A stretch of DNA of 64,000 nucleotides, from the NCBI GenBank assembly GCA_902776305.1, contig CACYPS010000020.1, forward strand, positions 18,129-82,128, given 5' to 3'. Source of the DNA: an uncultured Lachnospiraceae bacterium. GTDB lineage: Bacteria; Bacillota; Clostridia; Lachnospirales; Lachnospiraceae. Shown one piece after another: positions 7,589 to 27,332 of this stretch (the stretch's first letter is position 1; the number at the start of each line of letters is the position of its first letter). A program made the position numbers and the translations under genes. The notes below the pieces were generated by a model that saw only the letters and a list, made by a program, of their open reading frames with translations, ran no database searches and was not told the origin of the DNA.

Positions 7589-8066
7589 GTTGTCGATATC
7601 TGAAAAAACGTGTGCTATCTCAGATTGTTCGGCTTCTTCCGGCATTAATAATGGAATGGAATTTATCATGTCTGTGGTTAAGGTAAGCATTGTAGAACCA
7701 TATGCATTCATAGATAAATGATCTATTACGTTGGCTGTTTGAAGCTGAGCATTCACATACGAAGCAACTATTCCCGGTTTAAAGCGGACACGAATACAAT
7801 CGGATCCTTGAACCCAGTTATTCTGTGTTTTTCCTATAATTGCGTGCCTTCCTATGGCTCCTTTTCTACCAAAGACTATATCATTTTCTTGAATTATATG
7901 GTCACTAAGACGCTTTGCAGTGCTTTCAGAAACATAATCCAAATCGTTTTCCTGAATACACCCAGTCCCAATGTTTTTCACATTGATAACTGGAATCCCA
8001 GATGCTGTGTATTCCTTTGCGCTAAGTTGTGTACCAAACGGGCCAGTCTTCGTGTCTGCGATATCT

Positions 8067-21385: not shown

Positions 21386-23428
21386 CTATCTATTCATCAA
21401 CGCAATCACACGCTCAAAATCATATTCTCGAATCACCTCAACCCCTTCAGGATACGGGCCGGACTTGTCTGTAATAATTACCTCAGCCTCATCCGGACTC
21501 TGAACGACTTCCTCTGCCATCATCTCAAAGAAGGTATACTGATTGATTATATCCGTCAGATTGAAATAATCCGTCAAAAACTTCATAGACGTAGTGCCGG
21601 CGACGGCCGCATTGCTGTCCCGCGCCAGGTTCAGCCACACAAAATCGTTTTTAATCAGATCGATTCCGAACAAATAAGCAAATCGGCTGTCACAGTTCAC
21701 GGTAAACGAGCTTTGGACTGTTTTGGGCTCAAAGATCTGCCCGGACTGCATTTTATCCCTCAACATAAAACCGGCCTTGCACAGACATGTCTTAAAAGAG
21801 CCCCAGGAGAAGACATTGTCGCAGAAAATAAGATACAGAATCCTCGGATTCGTCTTTCTGAATTTTTCGATATTGATATCAAAATACTCGGAACCGCCGT
21901 TATACCCGGACGTCTCATCGCCCGAGAAAAAAATCGAGTCAGGCTTCCGCCCGGCCATTGTTCGCCAGGAGAATTCTGTCTGTCTTCCCTTAGAATCAAT
22001 TCCGAATACGGAAAGGTCTATATCATTTACTTTTTCCCAATATGTAAACGCCCGTATTATTTTTGCATTTTCGATGTGTATTCTTGAACCCTTCGGCAGC
22101 ACTCCGAATCCGCCCTGAGAAGTATTTTCCTGAATAGGCAGAGCGTAGTTTGCCATGTCAGGGTCAATATACACTTTTCCCAGGCGTCCTTTTAAAGCCG
22201 ACTTCAAGTATTCTTTCAGGGTACTTGTCAATCTGTCCCTATGCTCAGCACTGATAATTGAACGCCTCTGACTGCATTCTTCCTCCGTTTCGGTGTGAAC
22301 GCGCAACCGATTGTACTTGGTGAATTTAAAAGTCCTGGCTTCTGCATCAAACCGGTATTGGCCATACTGTATCAGGAGCTGAATAAGAACGATTAGATTT
22401 CTGCTATCCAGACATTCTATAACGCAGTCCAAATCTTCATCGCTGCTGCATCTGCTGATCAGGTAATTCAGATTTCTTAAGACCGCTCCGGACCCTTTCC
22501 GCTTTTTCAGGCACGAAGCAGCCTTTCGGACATCGCCCGAAGCCATCGCTTTTTCAAATGCAGCATACGCGGACAGATTCTCTTTCCCGCGCATAACATT
22601 GACAAATGCTTTTGCCTGCTCGGTCTTCGCCCGAAAATGAATGTGATGCAGCAATCCGTTCCATACGTGCTTCTTCTCACAGCAGTTTTCGATATCGCAT
22701 TTTCCCGGTACCGCAAGCAGGTCGATAACGGATGTTATGAACACTCTGTCTCTGTTCTTTAGATTCAGTTTTCTGATATTTTTATTATCATAGGACCGAT
22801 AGTTCAGCTCTTCGACGATTTTGATCACATCGGACATTTTCAGATGCGCTGCGAGGCTGATATTGCGAAGGTCCAGCAGTAAACGCACAGCGGTATTCTT
22901 AGATGCAATCTTCGAGGGCAGATAGTTATAGTCTGTTATGTATTGGCAGACCAGACTGTATTGCAGCTCGCTTAACGGACGCGTTCCGGCAAGAAGGTCT
23001 GAAACGGTCTGTTCAAGCTTCTTTTCCGCGTCGGCTTCCGTCAATATCGAAAACTCTTTAATTGTTATGTTCTCTTTAAAGGCGGTTCTTTCAAAATTCT
23101 CTTCAAATATTGAGTGTCCGGCTTCTGAAAAATCCCCCATTCCGTACGTTATGAAATAATGAAGCAACTGATCGAAAGCAAGCTGTTCTTCTGTGAGAGC
23201 GCGCACGCTTTCCGGGAAGCCTCTGTAGAACGGTTCGGGAACGTCTTCTCCAAGTTGTTCGGACACATAGGATATCATATCCGTTTCAGCCAGTTTCTCC
23301 CCTGAAACAATGCGGATTCCGAACAGGTTTGCCAGTGAAAATACAACTTCGAACGCATTTTTCTCATCACCGGTTTCCGAGACCAATATATGTTTTTGGA
23401 ACAAATAGTCTTTAAAAAGCTCTTTCAT
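21386..23428 (-). CDS. Large TerD-like domain protein of the Ro/TROVE locus
   Basis: About 680 residues. The N-terminal 400 residues are helical and unassigned. The C-terminal part (from about 430) resembles the TerD fold: LPKGSRIHIE, RAFTYWEKVNDIDLSVFGID, SGDETSGYNGGSEYFDI, RILYLIFCDN, in the order expected for calcium-binding TerD-type stress proteins. I prefer ATG 23428 as start because GAGGG lies at the right distance, rather than the GTG at 23437. It follows the TROVE/vWA gene on the same strand, separated by a 90-nt hairpin RNA candidate. Known: TerD, vWA and RNA-handling proteins recur together in bacterial stress/conflict operons. Inferred: it works with the TROVE protein. Confidence 0.7.
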   Translation of the reverse strand: MKELFKDYLFQKHILVSETGDEKNAFEVVFSLANLFGIRIVSGEKLAETDMISYVSEQLGEDVPEPFYRGFPESVRALTEEQLAFDQLLHYFITYGMGDFSEAGHSIFEENFERTAFKENITIKEFSILTEADAEKKLEQTVSDLLAGTRPLSELQYSLVCQYITDYNYLPSKIASKNTAVRLLLDLRNISLAAHLKMSDVIKIVEELNYRSYDNKNIRKLNLKNRDRVFITSVIDLLAVPGKCDIENCCEKKHVWNGLLHHIHFRAKTEQAKAFVNVMRGKENLSAYAAFEKAMASGDVRKAASCLKKRKGSGAVLRNLNYLISRCSSDEDLDCVIECLDSRNLIVLIQLLIQYGQYRFDAEARTFKFTKYNRLRVHTETEEECSQRRSIISAEHRDRLTSTLKEYLKSALKGRLGKVYIDPDMANYALPIQENTSQGGFGVLPKGSRIHIENAKIIRAFTYWEKVNDIDLSVFGIDSKGRQTEFSWRTMAGRKPDSIFFSGDETSGYNGGSEYFDINIEKFRKTNPRILYLIFCDNVFSWGSFKTCLCKAGFMLRDKMQSGQIFEPKTVQSSFTVNCDSRFAYLFGIDLIKNDFVWLNLARDSNAAVAGTTSMKFLTDYFNLTDIINQYTFFEMMAEEVVQSPDEAEVIITDKSGPYPEGVEVIREYDFERVIALMNR

Positions 23429-23470
23429 GTTGCCCACCCTCTAATCTGTTATGTCAGCAATAAAAGTGAA

Positions 23471-23639: not shown

Positions 23640-25109
23640 TCAGGCAACAGTGATAGCCGCATATCTGTCGGAACCTATGATCTTTTCCATCGCCTCCACA
23701 GGATTTAATCCTACACACTGCATGACCTGACGGAACACAGCTGCAGACTGACCGCTAACCAGCTGTACGCCGACACGGTTCTTGTCCGCATGGAACACAT
23801 CGTGGCGGCTTGCCACATTCCAGAAGATGATGTTCGGGATCCGATAACCGCGCTTACGGAATCGTCTCGCCATCTTCTCATAGAAGGTCCAGTCCTTATC
23901 ACCGCAGTAGTCGATCTCCATGTCGGAGATAACAATCAGGGACTTCGGCATATCTTCCTGTGCCACATGGTTCTTCACGGCGATCTCCAGCACGTGGCTG
24001 AATGCGGCCTGAAGATTCGTGTTGTTCGCCCAGTCTCTCATGTTGATACTACGGATCTTCTGCGCCAGAGTCTCACCCTTCAGCATCTGGATTCGGGATG
24101 TTCCGGAAAATGACATGAACATGTTATGGTACGGTCCGGTATTTCTTTCTGCGAAGTACACCGCCAGGCCGACAGATGTTGCCATCGGTCTTCCGTACAT
24201 GGAACCGGAGGTATCTGCAATGACCAAAGCATTGGTTCCTGCCTCTACGTAATCCGGCAGCTGACGCCACTGGGCTTCCAGTACGTCATCTTCCTTGACT
24301 CGGATTCCACTCCAGCTCATTTCCATGACCTTTTCAACAATGTCGTACGGAAACAGCGCTGCAGAGTGGATTGTCTCCGTGCCACTTGCCGCCTCACGGA
24401 CGAACTCGCCAAAACGGTCCGCATCATGCTTCATGAATGCATTTCTGTAGATCATCATGGCTCTGGAAGGAACCGCAGAGTAGCGGATCTCATCCCAGCG
24501 TCCCGCGGACATGAGTGCTTCCACCACGCCGATCTGCTTACGCATAGCGCGGACGAGGCGCTTGAACTCATATACTGAGTAACCTAATCTCTGTGCCGTC
24601 AGGATACCGAGCTTTCTGGTGTTCCGAGATGATGCATCTGCCGTCTTGATCCACTTTGCGAGCAGGGAGATTGCATTTCCCGCCTGCAGATTCTGACGGT
24701 CTTCCTCGAACTGTCTCTTCATCGCAGCCCACATCTCGTCCTCCATCGGAGTACCGATCAGGCAGTACAGGTCGTCGTAACGGCCGTATACACCGATCAG
24801 ATCCAGGTTCGGACGCAGCGCTTCCGGATGGTACTCTGCCATGAATTGCAGGATCGTACGGAAGGTCTGTCTTTCACCCAGTCCGCCTCTGACGTCTCGC
24901 GCGTAGAAGGCAGTCTTGGTCGCAAAAAGCGGATCTAACTTAAAGGCCTCGGAAAAAAGACGGGTAATCCGCTCCTTATCCGCGCTGCGGAGTGAACCGG
25001 CCGTTCCGAAGAAGTCCAGTCTTGCATCGCCTGTGGTGTTTAACGCCACGGCTCCGTTTTCGGTTCTTGTAAATGCAGCGTTCTTTATGGCTGCTTCAGC
25101 GAAATTCAT
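23640..25109 (-). CDS. TROVE/DUF2828 RNA-binding protein with von Willebrand A domain (Ro60-like)
   Basis: A 489-residue protein with the layout of Ro60/Rsr-type proteins: an N-terminal helical-repeat TROVE-like ring (1-285; ARDVRGGLGERQTFR at 70-84, LIGVYGRYDDLY) and a vWA domain (292-489) with the intact MIDAS metal site D299-T-S301-G-S303, a downstream NNTNLQAAF threonine and ISDMEID. Ro proteins bind misfolded RNAs and small Y RNAs and pass RNA to nucleases under stress. The sequence fits DUF2828 within this superfamily. Its 5' leader contains tandem tRNA-like RNA elements (25136-25595). The ribosome site is AAAGGAGG. Confidence 0.85.
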   Translation of the reverse strand: MNFAEAAIKNAAFTRTENGAVALNTTGDARLDFFGTAGSLRSADKERITRLFSEAFKLDPLFATKTAFYARDVRGGLGERQTFRTILQFMAEYHPEALRPNLDLIGVYGRYDDLYCLIGTPMEDEMWAAMKRQFEEDRQNLQAGNAISLLAKWIKTADASSRNTRKLGILTAQRLGYSVYEFKRLVRAMRKQIGVVEALMSAGRWDEIRYSAVPSRAMMIYRNAFMKHDADRFGEFVREAASGTETIHSAALFPYDIVEKVMEMSWSGIRVKEDDVLEAQWRQLPDYVEAGTNALVIADTSGSMYGRPMATSVGLAVYFAERNTGPYHNMFMSFSGTSRIQMLKGETLAQKIRSINMRDWANNTNLQAAFSHVLEIAVKNHVAQEDMPKSLIVISDMEIDYCGDKDWTFYEKMARRFRKRGYRIPNIIFWNVASRHDVFHADKNRVGVQLVSGQSAAVFRQVMQCVGLNPVEAMEKIIGSDRYAAITVA

Positions 25110-25135
25110 TGTCTTTTCCTCCTTTCCTTAAGTAG

Positions 25136-25235
25136 GCGCACTTGCTGCGTCATAATGGTATCCTCTTGAGGATTTCCTTAAGTTGGCGCACTTGCTGCGC
25201 CATATTGGTACCCTCTTGAGGGCTTCCGCTGTTAA
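25136..25235 (-). repeat. Two 50-bp leader repeats with paired hairpins
   Basis: Two tandem 50-bp units lie just before the TROVE start. Each holds a CCTC-aaga-GAGG type hairpin and a second hairpin GCGCA-gcaag-TGCGC, then CTTAAGGA. Both contain CAGCAA in the loop of the second hairpin, the box also found in the four RNA elements upstream. They would lie in the mRNA leader and are candidate protein-binding sites for autoregulation. Confidence 0.65.
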
Positions 25236-25241
25236 TAGTCA

Positions 25242-25318
25242 TGACCCTGTAAACTAAGGATTCGAACCTCTCATCAGATTATGAGTCTGTTTCTCCAATA
25301 AGTTTGCTGTAAGGGTCA
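25242..25318 (-). ncRNA. tRNA-like element with CAU anticodon-type loop
   Basis: A 77-nt minus-strand element with a 7-bp acceptor-like stem TGACCCT / AGGGTCA, an anticodon-like arm CAGA-CTCATAA-TCTG (CAU in the expected position), and a T-loop TTCGAAT closed by AGG / CCT. AAACT / AGTTT adds a second stem below the acceptor. The D-arm is poor, and extra bases between the T-arm and the acceptor depart from a normal tRNA. It carries the ACAGCAA box. It is more likely a tRNA mimic than a functional tRNA. Confidence 0.65.
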
Positions 25319-25326
25319 CATATTCA

Positions 25327-25392
25327 GGACACATTTTCATTCAAGGCCAATTAGCCTATAAGTCCCCAAGACTTGCTTGCTGTCAGTGTCCC
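25327..25392 (-). ncRNA. Small structured RNA element (tRNA-like array)
   Basis: A 66-nt element closed by GGACAC / GTGTCC, with an internal arm AAGTC-ttggg-GACTT and a second arm AGGC / GCCT, and the GACAGCAAGC box after the 5' stem strand. It has the same architecture as the neighbouring elements but without a canonical T-loop. Confidence 0.5.
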
Positions 25393-25400
25393 GTTCTTCA

Positions 25401-25479
25401 GGATGCATTAATTCATTAAATTCCATGGTTAACAGTCATGTGCTTTCTTGAATAGGCAATATTTTGCTGTAGGCATCCC
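25401..25479 (-). ncRNA. Small structured RNA element (tRNA-like array)
   Basis: A 79-nt element closed by GGATGC / GCATCC, with internal hairpins around CATG-N9-CATG and AATT-taatg-AATT, and the TACAGCAAAA box after the 5' stem strand. The arms are weak; its recognition relies on the shared box, the closing stem and the tandem position. Confidence 0.45.
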
Positions 25480-25483
25480 ACAG

Positions 25484-25595
25484 GGCGGTGGGTTGGATTC
25501 GAACCAACTACACCTGCGTGATAGCAGATTGCTGTTACAATCCCGGGCAGGATTCCTTTTTTTCTCAGTGCTCTGCCTATTGAGCTACCACCGCC
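25484..25595 (-). ncRNA. tRNA-like RNA with insertion, first element of the array
   Basis: A 112-nt minus-strand element with an acceptor stem GGCGGTGG / CCACCGCC, D-arm GCTC-N8-GAGC, T-arm GTTGG-TTCGAAT-CCAAC, and an arm ATCTGC / GCAGGT in the anticodon position. About 40 extra nucleotides, including the hairpin AATCC / GGATT and the box AACAGCAA, sit between the D-arm and the anticodon arm. No CCA is encoded. The intact acceptor, D and T arms show true tRNA mimicry, while the insertion rules out an ordinary tRNA. Bacterial Y RNAs of the YrlA type also carry tRNA-like modules. Confidence 0.75.
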
Positions 25596-25687
25596 AAATT
25601 ATTTTGTCCATCCTCACTGTAGCACGGAATAAGTACTGTGTCATTTAACTTGCAGTATAAAGCAGGGCTTTTGCGGTTGTGACAGCC

Positions 25688-26203: not shown

Positions 26204-26305
26204 TTATGCGTTGGCGCCGACTGCCTCCATTGTATAGCTGGAAACTACGTTTGCTGCAAGAAGTCCAAGGGTTGCTACACCGATAAGAGCTACGATCATT
26301 GTCAT
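26204..26305 (-). CDS. 33-residue hydrophobic peptide, copy 1
   Basis: This 33-codon frame begins MTMIVALIGVATLGLL and has AAGGA six bases before the ATG. It is the upstream member of a tandem pair; the two copies share about 125 bp of near-identical DNA including the ribosome site region. One membrane-type segment is visible. It has a leader with a strong hairpin (26356-26395), and the pair ends at the terminator at 25688. No known family is recognised. Confidence 0.7.
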   Translation of the reverse strand: MTMIVALIGVATLGLLAANVVSSYTMEAVGANA

Positions 26306-26355
26306 TTTTTTATCCTTCTTTCTATATTCATTTTCGTTCTGTTTTATTATTGCTT

Positions 26356-26395
26356 GATAATCCCCGGTATTTTGTTTACCGGTAATGCGATTATC
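26356..26395 (-). promoter_or_regulatory. Leader hairpin of the peptide genes
   Basis: GATAATC / GATTATC outer arms enclose a perfect CCGGTA / TACCGG inner stem, 50-90 nt before the start of peptide copy 1. It is probably a structured mRNA leader. The rest of 26306-26705 shows no gene. Confidence 0.5.
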
Positions 26396-26705
26396 TGTGT
26401 CTATATACGGCCTCCCTGACAGCGGGGCTAATCATTTTTAAAATTTTTTACAGAAGGTTTTTGCAGAAGAAAAAAGAAGAGGGCTTTCAAAGTAGACAAG
26501 GCGTGCAGGATCGGCAGGGACCGGCAGACTTTTCTGACAGCTCGATGTCCGGGCTTCCGTGCTCGGTTCATTGCAGACAGTGTGAATTTATAGTATCATA
26601 AAAAGTAATTCAAAGAGGAGAACGGGATGCGCAGGGATTCGTTGTGGAATTATGTCAGCTATCACAGATCCGAATCCTGCGCCGACTCTCGCGAGCGAGA
26701 CTTGA

Positions 26706-27332
26706 AATGTAGGGAGAACAGGTCTGGACCTTTCCGAGCGATACCTTGCCTGGTATGTTGCACAGCCCGTACCTGAGAACATAAGCCGCTCGCAGGCCGG
26801 CGAAGGTCTCCACCTGTACGACGAAAATCCCAACAACATCTTCCTGTACGGCGGAAAAGGAAAGTGCGCCGGTACCCTCTTTGCCCAGGGCATCGGGCCT
26901 GTTTCTGAGAGCGAGTATCCTTATCGGGGGCTCGAGGGAAATCTTGCCATACCCGGCGGGCTTGTGGCCCCGGATGGCACGACGAAGGATGCGAACGGTG
27001 GTGACTGGGGAATTGTCGATGAAAATGGCCTGCACACAGGCTACTTTTATCTCTCGTACTACGACACCAGCATTGGCGTTCTCGAGAGCTTTGACTTTGA
27101 TCTGTGCGAAAACCATGACCAGAAGAATGCATTGCAGCTGGATTATATGCCCGCATCTTCGGATGACTGGTCGCAAAAAAGTAATACCCCTATTTGGTGC
27201 GCGAACGTCTTCACTCTTGATAAGGACATGCGCATCGATGAGGTTGCAACGCGTTTCTCGATGAATGAAGACGTGCCGTTAACAGGGTTCACGGTCATCT
27301 TCGACATCTACCGGCAGAGAGAACCACGATGA
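26706..27332 (+). pseudogene. Fragment of a C1 (papain-like) peptidase with lectin-like insert
   Basis: The frame opens after a TGA at 26703 with no start codon and reads LDLSERYLAWY, then GEGLHLYDENPN, SESEYPYRGLEG, and later GYFYLSYYDTSI. These segments match secreted papain-family peptidases of Clostridia that carry a lectin-like insert. The N-terminal part with the catalytic Cys is absent, and the catalytic His and KNSWG region between SEYPYRG and GYFYLSYYD is missing. The C-terminus is also short. This is a decayed gene with terminal and internal deletions. Confidence 0.75.

What the first reader, a model, noticed from the sequence alone, without database searches (positions are those of the whole stretch)
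25136..25595. Tandem array of tRNA-like and CAGCAA-box small RNAs in the leader of a Ro/TROVE gene
Six units in 460 nt share a CAGCAA box (minus strand; at 25529, 25464, 25377, 25304, 25192 and 25142 on the plus-strand scale). Four have their own closing stem (GGCGGTGG/CCACCGCC, GGATGC/GCATCC, GGACAC/GTGTCC, TGACCCT/AGGGTCA). Two have clear T-loops TTCGAAT, and one has a CAU anticodon-type loop. The first has intact acceptor, D and T arms but 40 extra nucleotides. Bacterial Y RNAs of YrlA type carry one tRNA-like module; an array of several different modules ahead of a TROVE-vWA protein has, to my knowledge, not been described. It could be a multi-RNA Ro particle, a decoy for tRNA-targeting nucleases, or a source of tRNA fragments.
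Basis: partly seen in the sequence, partly recalled or inferred. Interest (0 to 1): 0.92.

Follow-up and report, generated by a model that had tools for sequence, protein, structure and literature searches.

The report
Arrayed tRNA-like RNAs beside Ro protein
Next to a bacterial gene for a Ro60-like RNA-binding protein lie four small tRNA-resembling RNAs that share one structural tag, and the same tag sits beside the same gene family in many bacteria and phages, so they look like a new, multi-copy branch of the little-understood 'Y RNAs'.

Summary
The array is real but has four units, not six. Units A-D share an element: 7-bp stem, 2 nt, ACAGCAA, with G after the stem's 3' strand. The last two 'CAGCAA boxes' belong to a 50-nt tandem repeat at the ribosome-binding site. 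The gene is not Pfam TROVE but DUF2828+DUF7788, with a Ro60-like predicted fold. Beside 69 loci of this family, 126 of 229 ACAGCA[AG] boxes carry the element, against 1 of 82 antisense and 2 of 96 scrambled boxes. At the thresholds used, three RNA models hit 14 of 145 related genomes, all among the 19 with the gene. Elements also sit in phage tRNA clusters (FelixO1, Listeria and Bacillus phages). One relative's unit (box ACAGCAT) matches YrlA at E 2.8e-7, below Rfam's cut-off; other permuted-looking units do not. Window unit A is an ordinary-order tRNA body carrying the element as a closed hairpin instead of an anticodon arm, the inverse of YrlA's layout. I read these as Y-RNA-like ligands of a DUF2828 Ro protein, in arrays and several circular permutations. 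Binding and expression here are inferred; function is open. 8 of 23 phage/plasmid and 12 of 46 bacterial loci lack a strict element.

The parts
25484..25594 (-). Unit A: tRNA body in ordinary order (acceptor GCGGTGG/CCACCGC, D arm, T arm GTTGG-TTCGAAT-CCAAC) with the shared element in place of the anticodon arm
   Evidence: Rfam tRNA 44.5 bits; 17 units of this form, window included; 14 aligned: 13 of 23 pairs with both-side changes, 99.1% of cells paired vs 86.0 shuffled (hairpin and acceptor were picked by pairing)
25529..25555 (-). Element of unit A in closed-hairpin form: 3' strand GAATCCT, G, loop CCC, 5' strand GGGATTG, TA, ACAGCAA (6 of 7 paired here; 7/7 in 14 of the 17)
25399..25479 (-). 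Unit B: GGGATGC-CT-ACAGCAA ... ASL-like hairpin CATGACTGTTAACCATG ... GCATCCT-G
   Evidence: model R2 29.8 bits, one of only two R2 hits in the window (E <= 10) and in the whole own genome (E <= 0.5)
25325..25392 (-). Unit C: GGGACAC-TG-ACAGCAA ... GTGTCCT-G
   Evidence: model R2 30.6 bits
25240..25319 (-). Unit D: GTGACCC-TT-ACAGCAA ... ASL-like hairpin CAGACTCATAATCTG, T arm with GGTTCGAATCC ... GGGTCAT-G
   Evidence: model R3 87.8 bits (the window is a training row)
25226..25232 (-). ACAGCGG just upstream of the repeat; in several relatives the same word directly precedes the ribosome-binding site at about -24 of the gene. Possible autoregulatory site (hypothesis)
25123..25221 (-).
   Evidence: TRF, 2 copies, 91%; single copy in relative L010
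23640..25109 (-). Ro60-like protein, 489 aa, DUF2828 + DUF7788 (vWA, DTSGSM)
   Evidence: Pfam; phrog_850 RNA-binding protein; model pLDDT 88; only Ro/TROVE structures at E <= 0.001

Best explanation
Units A-D are Y-RNA-like small RNAs, the cognate RNAs of the adjacent DUF2828 Ro60-fold protein. The shared element (7-bp stem, two unpaired nt, ACAGCAA, G after the 3' strand) is the protein-binding handle. The rest of each RNA is a variable module: a tRNA body (A), an anticodon-arm hairpin (B), an anticodon arm plus T arm (D), or a plain loop. In YrlA-like units elsewhere in the family the handle is at the RNA ends and the tRNA module is permuted and closed at the acceptor. In unit A the acceptor ends are open and the handle is a closed hairpin, so A and the YrlA type look like circular permutations of one architecture. 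The protein could thus carry a set of different RNAs that mimic tRNA pieces. The most likely role is surveillance, repair or shielding of tRNA, as suggested by RtcB, RNA-ligase and tRNA-cluster neighbours in phages. Shown: sequence and structure conservation, covariation, genomic association, Ro-like predicted fold. Inferred: binding, processing into separate RNAs, and the role.
For: Fixed-register stem in 96 of 143 ACAGCAA boxes vs 3.4% of controls; G after the 3' strand in 99 of 107 paired units (107 = these 96 plus 11 with ACAGCA not followed by A). The 99 have 39 distinct stem sequences (paired by selection, so the number of stems is the evidence, not the pairing). Strict test over 69 loci: 126 of 229 boxes on the sense strand, 1 of 82 antisense, 2 of 96 scrambled boxes. 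Covariation in helices not used to find the boxes' stems, such as the ASL-like stem and T stem. FelixO1 whole genome: 29 ACAGCAA, only 4 elements, all in the tRNA cluster after the DUF2828 gene. R2 hits in 9 of 145 genomes, R3 in 7, R1 at >= 50 bits in 8, always within the 19 that have the protein. In the own genome R2 finds only units B and C. One relative's unit (L013, box ACAGCAT) matches Rfam YrlA at E 2.8e-7, and YrlA is a permuted tRNA. Fold: only Ro60/TROVE structures at E <= 0.001. RtcB overlaps the gene in L071 and lies 1.3 kb downstream in Listeria phage LMTA-94; an RNA ligase lies just upstream in three jumbo phages.
Against: No binding or expression data for this organism. 12 of 46 bacterial leaders and 8 of 23 phage/plasmid loci lack a strict element, including relatives with 87-88% identical protein (L026, L027, L029, L032). 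Only 4 of 9 held-out phage loci had it, and the three jumbo phages with the RNA ligase are among the misses. 5 of the 19 genomes with the protein got no hit from any model at the thresholds used. No unit reaches Rfam's YrlA gathering score; the permuted-looking units of L072, L074 and L080 give no YrlA match at E <= 0.1; the YrlA basal consensus lacks ACAGCAA. In the D-type alignment the closing stem never varies. R1-R3 were trained on some of the genomes they hit. The predicted fold of unit D alone is not a clean tRNA-like form.
Confidence: 0.77

Rival explanations
1. Decoys: the units imitate tRNA anticodon arms and T arms to absorb anticodon nucleases or tRNA-modifying enzymes, and the Ro protein stabilises or delivers them.
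For: Hairpins with an anticodon-loop frame and a variable triplet: 12 matched (11 B units, one C-type unit; triplets GTT, TTT, GGT, CTT, CGT, TCT) and, by eye, 14 of 16 D units (CAT, ACT, GTA, GTT, TAT, CCA, AAT) (the search pattern itself required the loop to end AA in B). Units sit in phage tRNA clusters, and RNA repair genes are neighbours in some phages.
Against: Many units, and all A-type units, lack an anticodon arm. Salmonella YrlA was reported not to be cut by the nuclease studied there (PMC7790460, passages), although those authors also propose it as a competitive inhibitor. I identified no nuclease at this locus.
Confidence: 0.3
2. Cis-regulatory leader: the structures control transcription or translation of the DUF2828 gene, for example by protein binding at the ACAGCGG/RBS site.
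For: In the window and many bacterial relatives the array is directly upstream; ACAGCGG precedes the ribosome-binding site in several relatives; tiny overlapping ORFs lie in the window leader.
Against: In FelixO1, LeBron, Lolly9, S-CoN_Ph12 and PX29 the units lie downstream of the gene, some between tRNA genes. Units are closed modules with many different stems. Autoregulation could coexist with the main reading.
Confidence: 0.12
3. Unit A is a genuine tRNA gene with an intron, and the other units are decayed tRNAs of a phage-type tRNA array.
For: ARAGORN, when introns are allowed, makes 12 intron-tRNA calls in 11 of 32 upstream regions. Aeromonas phage PX29 has one annotated as a tRNA-Leu in two pieces.
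Against: The called anticodons differ in all 11 distinct calls (GAG, ACA, TAA, GAA, TTT, GAT, TCG, ACC, ATA, AAA, TAT; the twelfth is a duplicate locus). CCA directly follows none of 17 A-type units. The 'intron' carries the same stem plus ACAGCAA as the non-tRNA units. Decay would not keep compensatory pairs.
Confidence: 0.05

Closest known systems
YrlA bacterial Y RNA (Rfam RF02553), rsr-yrlA-rtcBA operons
   Same: Small RNAs beside a Ro60-type gene; terminal stem; tRNA-like module (permuted in YrlA and, by eye, in several units here); RtcB in some loci
   Different: No YrlA match at the window; best relative unit 45.7 bits < 69. YrlA basal consensus has no ACAGCAA. Here arrays of up to 9 elements (L023), plain, linear and permuted modules, and an inverse permutation (unit A)
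Ro60 / TROVE proteins (X. laevis Ro, Thermus phage phiLo Ro60)
   Same: Predicted fold aligned over most of the chain (TM 0.53-0.56, E 8.9e-7 to 2.1e-6); vWA with DxSGS
   Different: No PF05731 match; 11-16% identity; Pfam DUF2828 + DUF7788
Listeria phage CKA15 abundant noncoding RNAs (PMC12282133; passages and section 8 seen)
   Same: Same gene family (CKA15_055). The authors report three highly transcribed noncoding regions within 2 kb upstream and suggest they may be Y RNAs. My three elements lie at 25385-25543 of OR088597, after a TTGACA-type promoter-like sequence
   Different: Only one region's coordinates were in what I read (26,236-26,727), and it holds none of my elements, so identity with the other two is not shown. 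No motif or structure is given in the passages I saw
Phage tRNA clusters
   Same: Elements are interleaved with tRNA genes in FelixO1 and vB_BcoS-136 and lie next to them in Listeria phages
   Different: The elements are not listed as tRNAs in these records; one A-type unit is annotated as a two-piece tRNA in PX29

Membership tests
Bacterial Y RNA, YrlA type (RF02553) | Encoded beside a Ro60 orthologue | tested here: met
   The DUF2828 gene, predicted Ro60 fold, starts 130 nt after unit D
Bacterial Y RNA, YrlA type (RF02553) | Score at or above the Rfam gathering cut-off | tested here: not met
   No RF02553 match at the window; best relative unit 45.7 < 69 bits; the single own-genome RF02553 hit at E <= 0.001 spans two tRNAs on another contig
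Bacterial Y RNA, YrlA type (RF02553) | tRNA-like module in permuted order on a basal stem | tested here: not met
   Window unit A is in ordinary order with the element inside. Permuted-looking modules exist in relatives L013, L072, L074, L080 (by eye), of which only L013 matches YrlA at E <= 0.1
Bacterial Y RNA, YrlA type (RF02553) | Bound by the Ro protein | not testable with these tools
   Needs pull-down or binding assay
Ro60 / TROVE protein | PF05731 TROVE domain | tested here: not met
Ro60 / TROVE protein | Ro60 fold with vWA carrying DxSGS | tested here: met
   D299, S301, G302, S303 invariant in 22 sequences; predicted model, not solved
tRNA | Acceptor, D and T arms | tested here: met
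   Unit A
tRNA | Anticodon arm with consistent anticodon | tested here: not met
   Replaced by the element; ARAGORN finds no tRNA in the window; called anticodons differ between relatives

The most novel reading that the evidence does not exclude
DUF2828 Ro proteins, widespread in phages (681 of 50,697 phage records), use one RNA handle to collect a repertoire of tRNA-mimicking Y RNAs. The same RNP is built from circularly permuted genes: YrlA-like (closed acceptor, open handle) and its inverse, a tRNA whose anticodon arm is the Ro handle. The variable anticodon-like triplets would make the array a set of tRNA decoys or repair guides in phage-host conflict.
Probability: 0.35. Interest if true: 0.9.

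Novelty: new variant of a known kind. Interest (0 to 1): 0.74.

Why it matters
It gives a defined sequence-structure handle for a large phage-borne Ro family whose RNA partners I did not find described in motif terms in the searches named under Tried and rejected. It offers an explanation for unannotated RNA-like sequences inside phage tRNA clusters and for at least one phage 'intron tRNA'. It also suggests that Y RNAs occur in opposite circular permutations. This makes the open question of what bacterial and phage Ro particles do to tRNAs directly testable with short RNAs.

Tried and rejected
Considered and rejected. (1) Six units: two are a coding-like 50-nt repeat. (2) Classical TROVE: PF05731 absent. 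15 ACAGCA[AG] boxes on both strands of 9 PF05731 loci gave 0 elements (the loci are about 3.1-3.4 kb each, so far flanks were not seen). (3) The 683-aa gene 21386-23437 as partner: tblastn found it only in own-genome stretches among the loci held (many are short). (4) A PADLOC defence hit for the DUF2828 protein: none. (5) R1 as a genome-wide detector: it also scores ordinary tRNAs near 45 bits (144 of 145 genomes at E <= 0.001), so only hits of 50 bits or more were used. (6) A first stem test with free spacing was too permissive (422 of 920 random positions) and was replaced by the fixed-register test. (7) Fnu1 (L078) has a long stem but fails the G rule and is counted as a miss. L082 also counts as a miss though R2 finds a unit there at E 0.0018.

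Selection and dropped rows. Leaders shorter than 150 nt (L003, L006, L028, L056, L058) and nine duplicate loci were dropped; near-duplicates such as L026/L027/L029/L032 and L054/L055 were kept. The 9 held-out phage loci were fetched after the element was defined; the scan allowed the 3' strand from 25 nt instead of 30 and added the G rule. A2 uses 14 of the 17 A-type units (L012 and two of three L057 units left out). A3 uses 16 D-type units (74-92 nt only). A4 uses 32 units (75 nt or shorter, at most 2 per stem, GTGACCC type left out). Units and A4 were chosen because their stems pair, so 273 of 273 and 100% paired are by construction. In one search, one of the 13 closed ACAGCAA rows (L026) and three variant rows (L029, L032 twice) are not in tRNA bodies; the 17 A-type units are the other 12 plus 5 with ACAGCAG or GCAGCAA. 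L071's two strict elements have ACAGCAG boxes (no ACAGCAA in its flanks).

Papers. Passages seen: PMC12282133 (plus its section 8), PMC7824862, PMC13148394, PMC7790460, PMC11472068, PMC8394870, PMC7765460, PMC9569102, PMC4726728, PMC11277228. Sim et al. 2020 and Chen et al. 2014 (RNA 20:1715) are not held; Wang et al. 2018 was not looked up. What I say of them is recalled or quoted by the papers above. Chen 2014 is recalled to report Y RNAs near Ro60 in bacteria and phages, so some mycobacteriophage units may already be listed there. 'Not found in print' rests on searches only.

Full report
WHAT IS THERE. On the minus strand, 130 nt upstream of a 489-aa gene (23640-25109), four closed RNA-like units lie in tandem: A 25594-25484, B 25479-25399, C 25392-25325, D 25319-25240. 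A is an Rfam tRNA match with a long middle (44.5 bits). B, C and D reach no Rfam family (gathering scores; E <= 5). Folded alone they beat shuffles only modestly (z -1.4 to -2.6). One relative has a single copy.

THE ELEMENT. In relatives the box is ACAGCAA, and a 7-bp stem ends exactly two nucleotides before it. In 59 loci (46 bacterial leaders, 13 phage or plasmid), 96 of 143 ACAGCAA boxes have a 7/7 paired 3' strand at that one register; shifted positions give 165 of 4895; registers 0, 1, 3, 4 and 5 give 15, 61, 23, 11 and 5 of 143 (register 1 is probably high because many stems extend by one pair). ACAGCA not followed by A gives 11 of 80. The base after the 3' strand is G in 99 of the 107 paired units. 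Those 99 come from 42 loci and have 39 distinct stems; they were selected for pairing, so the point is that so many different stems occupy one register. A strict test on 69 loci found elements at 126 of 229 ACAGCA[AG] boxes (109 open, 17 closed), against 1 of 82 on the antisense strand of the whole loci and 2 of 96 scrambled boxes. A word count over 34 diverse loci puts ACAGCAA in 29 flanks (6.9 expected), with the T-loop word GGTTCGA in 22 (4.4 expected).

TWO TOPOLOGIES. Most units are open: the stem closes the RNA. A second form is a closed hairpin, 3'strand-GNNN-5'strand-NN-ACAGCAA: 13 of the same 143 boxes, control 29 of 3146; 12 of the 13 are in tRNA bodies. With ACAGCAG/GCAGCAA variants there are 17 such tRNA bodies, the window included, with an acceptor stem scoring 6-7 of 7 and a 5-bp T stem (best placement chosen). 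In 14 of them 99.1% of 322 cells pair (86.0 shuffled; at most 51.9% when slid), and 13 of 23 pairs change on both sides, among them 3 of 5 T-stem pairs. In 16 D units the closing stem does not vary, but 3 of 4 ASL-like and 2 of 4 T-stem pairs change on both sides. By eye, open units include plain loops, linear tRNA cores (L072:1910, L081:2364, L023:1001), and permuted tRNAs with T arm, closed acceptor, D arm (FelixO1 L074:6433, L072:2105 and 2497, L080:1768, L013:1201). Of the four loci with permuted units scanned, only L013 (box ACAGCAT) matches YrlA: 45.7 bits, E 2.8e-7, below the cut-off of 69. The YrlA consensus printed is such a permuted tRNA, and a structural paper says Y RNA superposes on tRNA with a circular permutation (PMC11472068, passages). 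The A form is therefore the inverse permutation of the YrlA layout. That is my inference from secondary structure.

THE PROTEIN. Pfam gives DUF2828 and DUF7788 and no TROVE; PHROG 850 'RNA-binding protein'. The AlphaFold2 model (pLDDT 88) matches only Ro60/TROVE structures at E <= 0.001, four of them, TM 0.53-0.56 by query or target length 0.52-0.56. The family is in 681 of 50,697 phage records and 4 of 72,556 plasmid records, and in 19 of 145 related genomes, own included, but in only 4 of 299 drawn across the phylum by the Pfam model.

ASSOCIATION. R2 (general open unit, E <= 0.001) hits 9 of 145 genomes, R3 (unit D, E <= 1e-5) 7, and R1 (unit A, 50 bits or more) 8; together 14 genomes, all inside the 19 with the protein; 5 of the 19 get no model hit. 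Five of the nine R2 genomes and several of the others supplied training sequences; G005, G012, G034 and G041 (R2) and G034, G057, G074 and G088 (R1) did not. In G012 and G034 the RNA and the gene are on different contigs. The own genome gives only units B and C with R2, plus a second D-type unit at a contig edge with R3. In FelixO1, 4 of 29 ACAGCAA are elements, all in the tRNA cluster behind the gene. Of 9 phage loci fetched after the rule was set, 4 have elements: Campylobacter PC14, Enterococcus EfV12, Mycobacterium Lolly9, and Aeromonas PX29, where the unit is the annotated two-piece tRNA-Leu 2.5 kb downstream of the gene. Jumbo phages GAP32, BF and fENko, Lak-B4 and PG-2021_22 have none. 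Over all, 8 of 23 phage/plasmid and 12 of 46 bacterial loci have none. In distant DUF2828 genomes, G296 and G322 have elements upstream and G236 does not.

MECHANISM. I take the element as the Ro-binding handle and the variable parts as effector or mimic modules. Support is genomic and structural only. RtcB overlaps the gene in L071 and lies 1.3 kb downstream in LMTA-94; an RNA ligase directly precedes it in GAP32 and, with one small gene between, in BF and fENko, though those three lack the element. Published context: YrlA tethers Rsr to PNPase and carries tRNA-type modifications (PMC8394870, passages). Listeria phage CKA15 strongly transcribes three noncoding regions upstream of its family member, which its authors suggest may be Y RNAs (PMC12282133). 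My three CKA15 elements lie just after a strong promoter-like sequence, but the one region whose coordinates I saw does not contain them. B and D hairpins keep an anticodon-loop-like frame with varying triplets; the 12 matched hairpins all have U before the final AA (AA was required by the pattern). That leaves the decoy reading open.

VERDICT. A new, arrayed, differently tagged branch of Y-RNA-like RNAs tied to DUF2828 Ro proteins, with an inverse-permuted tRNA form. Binding, expression here and function are not shown.

Noticed in passing
window 25106-25221 (-); L010: Two tandem tiny ORFs (MAQQVRQLKEILKRIPL, MTQQVRLLKERRKRQ; read by eye) with ATGA overlaps run into the DUF2828 start; one copy in a relative. 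Possible translational coupling or leader peptide.
   Followed up: partly
L025, L030, L031, L035, L036, L038, L053 at about -24 of the gene: ACAGCGG directly before the ribosome-binding site (AAAGGAGG or AAAGGGGG), a candidate autoregulatory site related to the box.
   Followed up: no
L108:7913-8029 (Aeromonas phage PX29): GenBank 'tRNA-Leu' in two pieces is an A-type unit (R1 67 bits); a second tRNA-like unit with a variant box lies at 7779-7894 (43.5 bits).
   Followed up: partly
window 21386-23437 (-): 683-aa protein related to the RING_SCO0854 family (102 bits, far below its cut-off of 600) and phrog_33734; not found beside DUF2828 in other loci held.
   Followed up: partly
L118:1-330 (G000:C85): A second D-type unit of the own genome at a contig edge, with tRNA-like sequence next to it (by eye) and no DUF2828 match beyond chance on the 3.5 kb taken.
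   Followed up: partly
L031, L026, L045, L052 and window near 25650: A TTRAATGACA-like word upstream of the array or gene, perhaps a promoter part (seen by eye).
   Followed up: no
L083 (Listeria phage CKA15), record positions 26,236-26,727: A region with the phage's highest RNA read counts by the paper holds no ACAGCAA box, so it is a different RNA from the elements described here.
   Followed up: no
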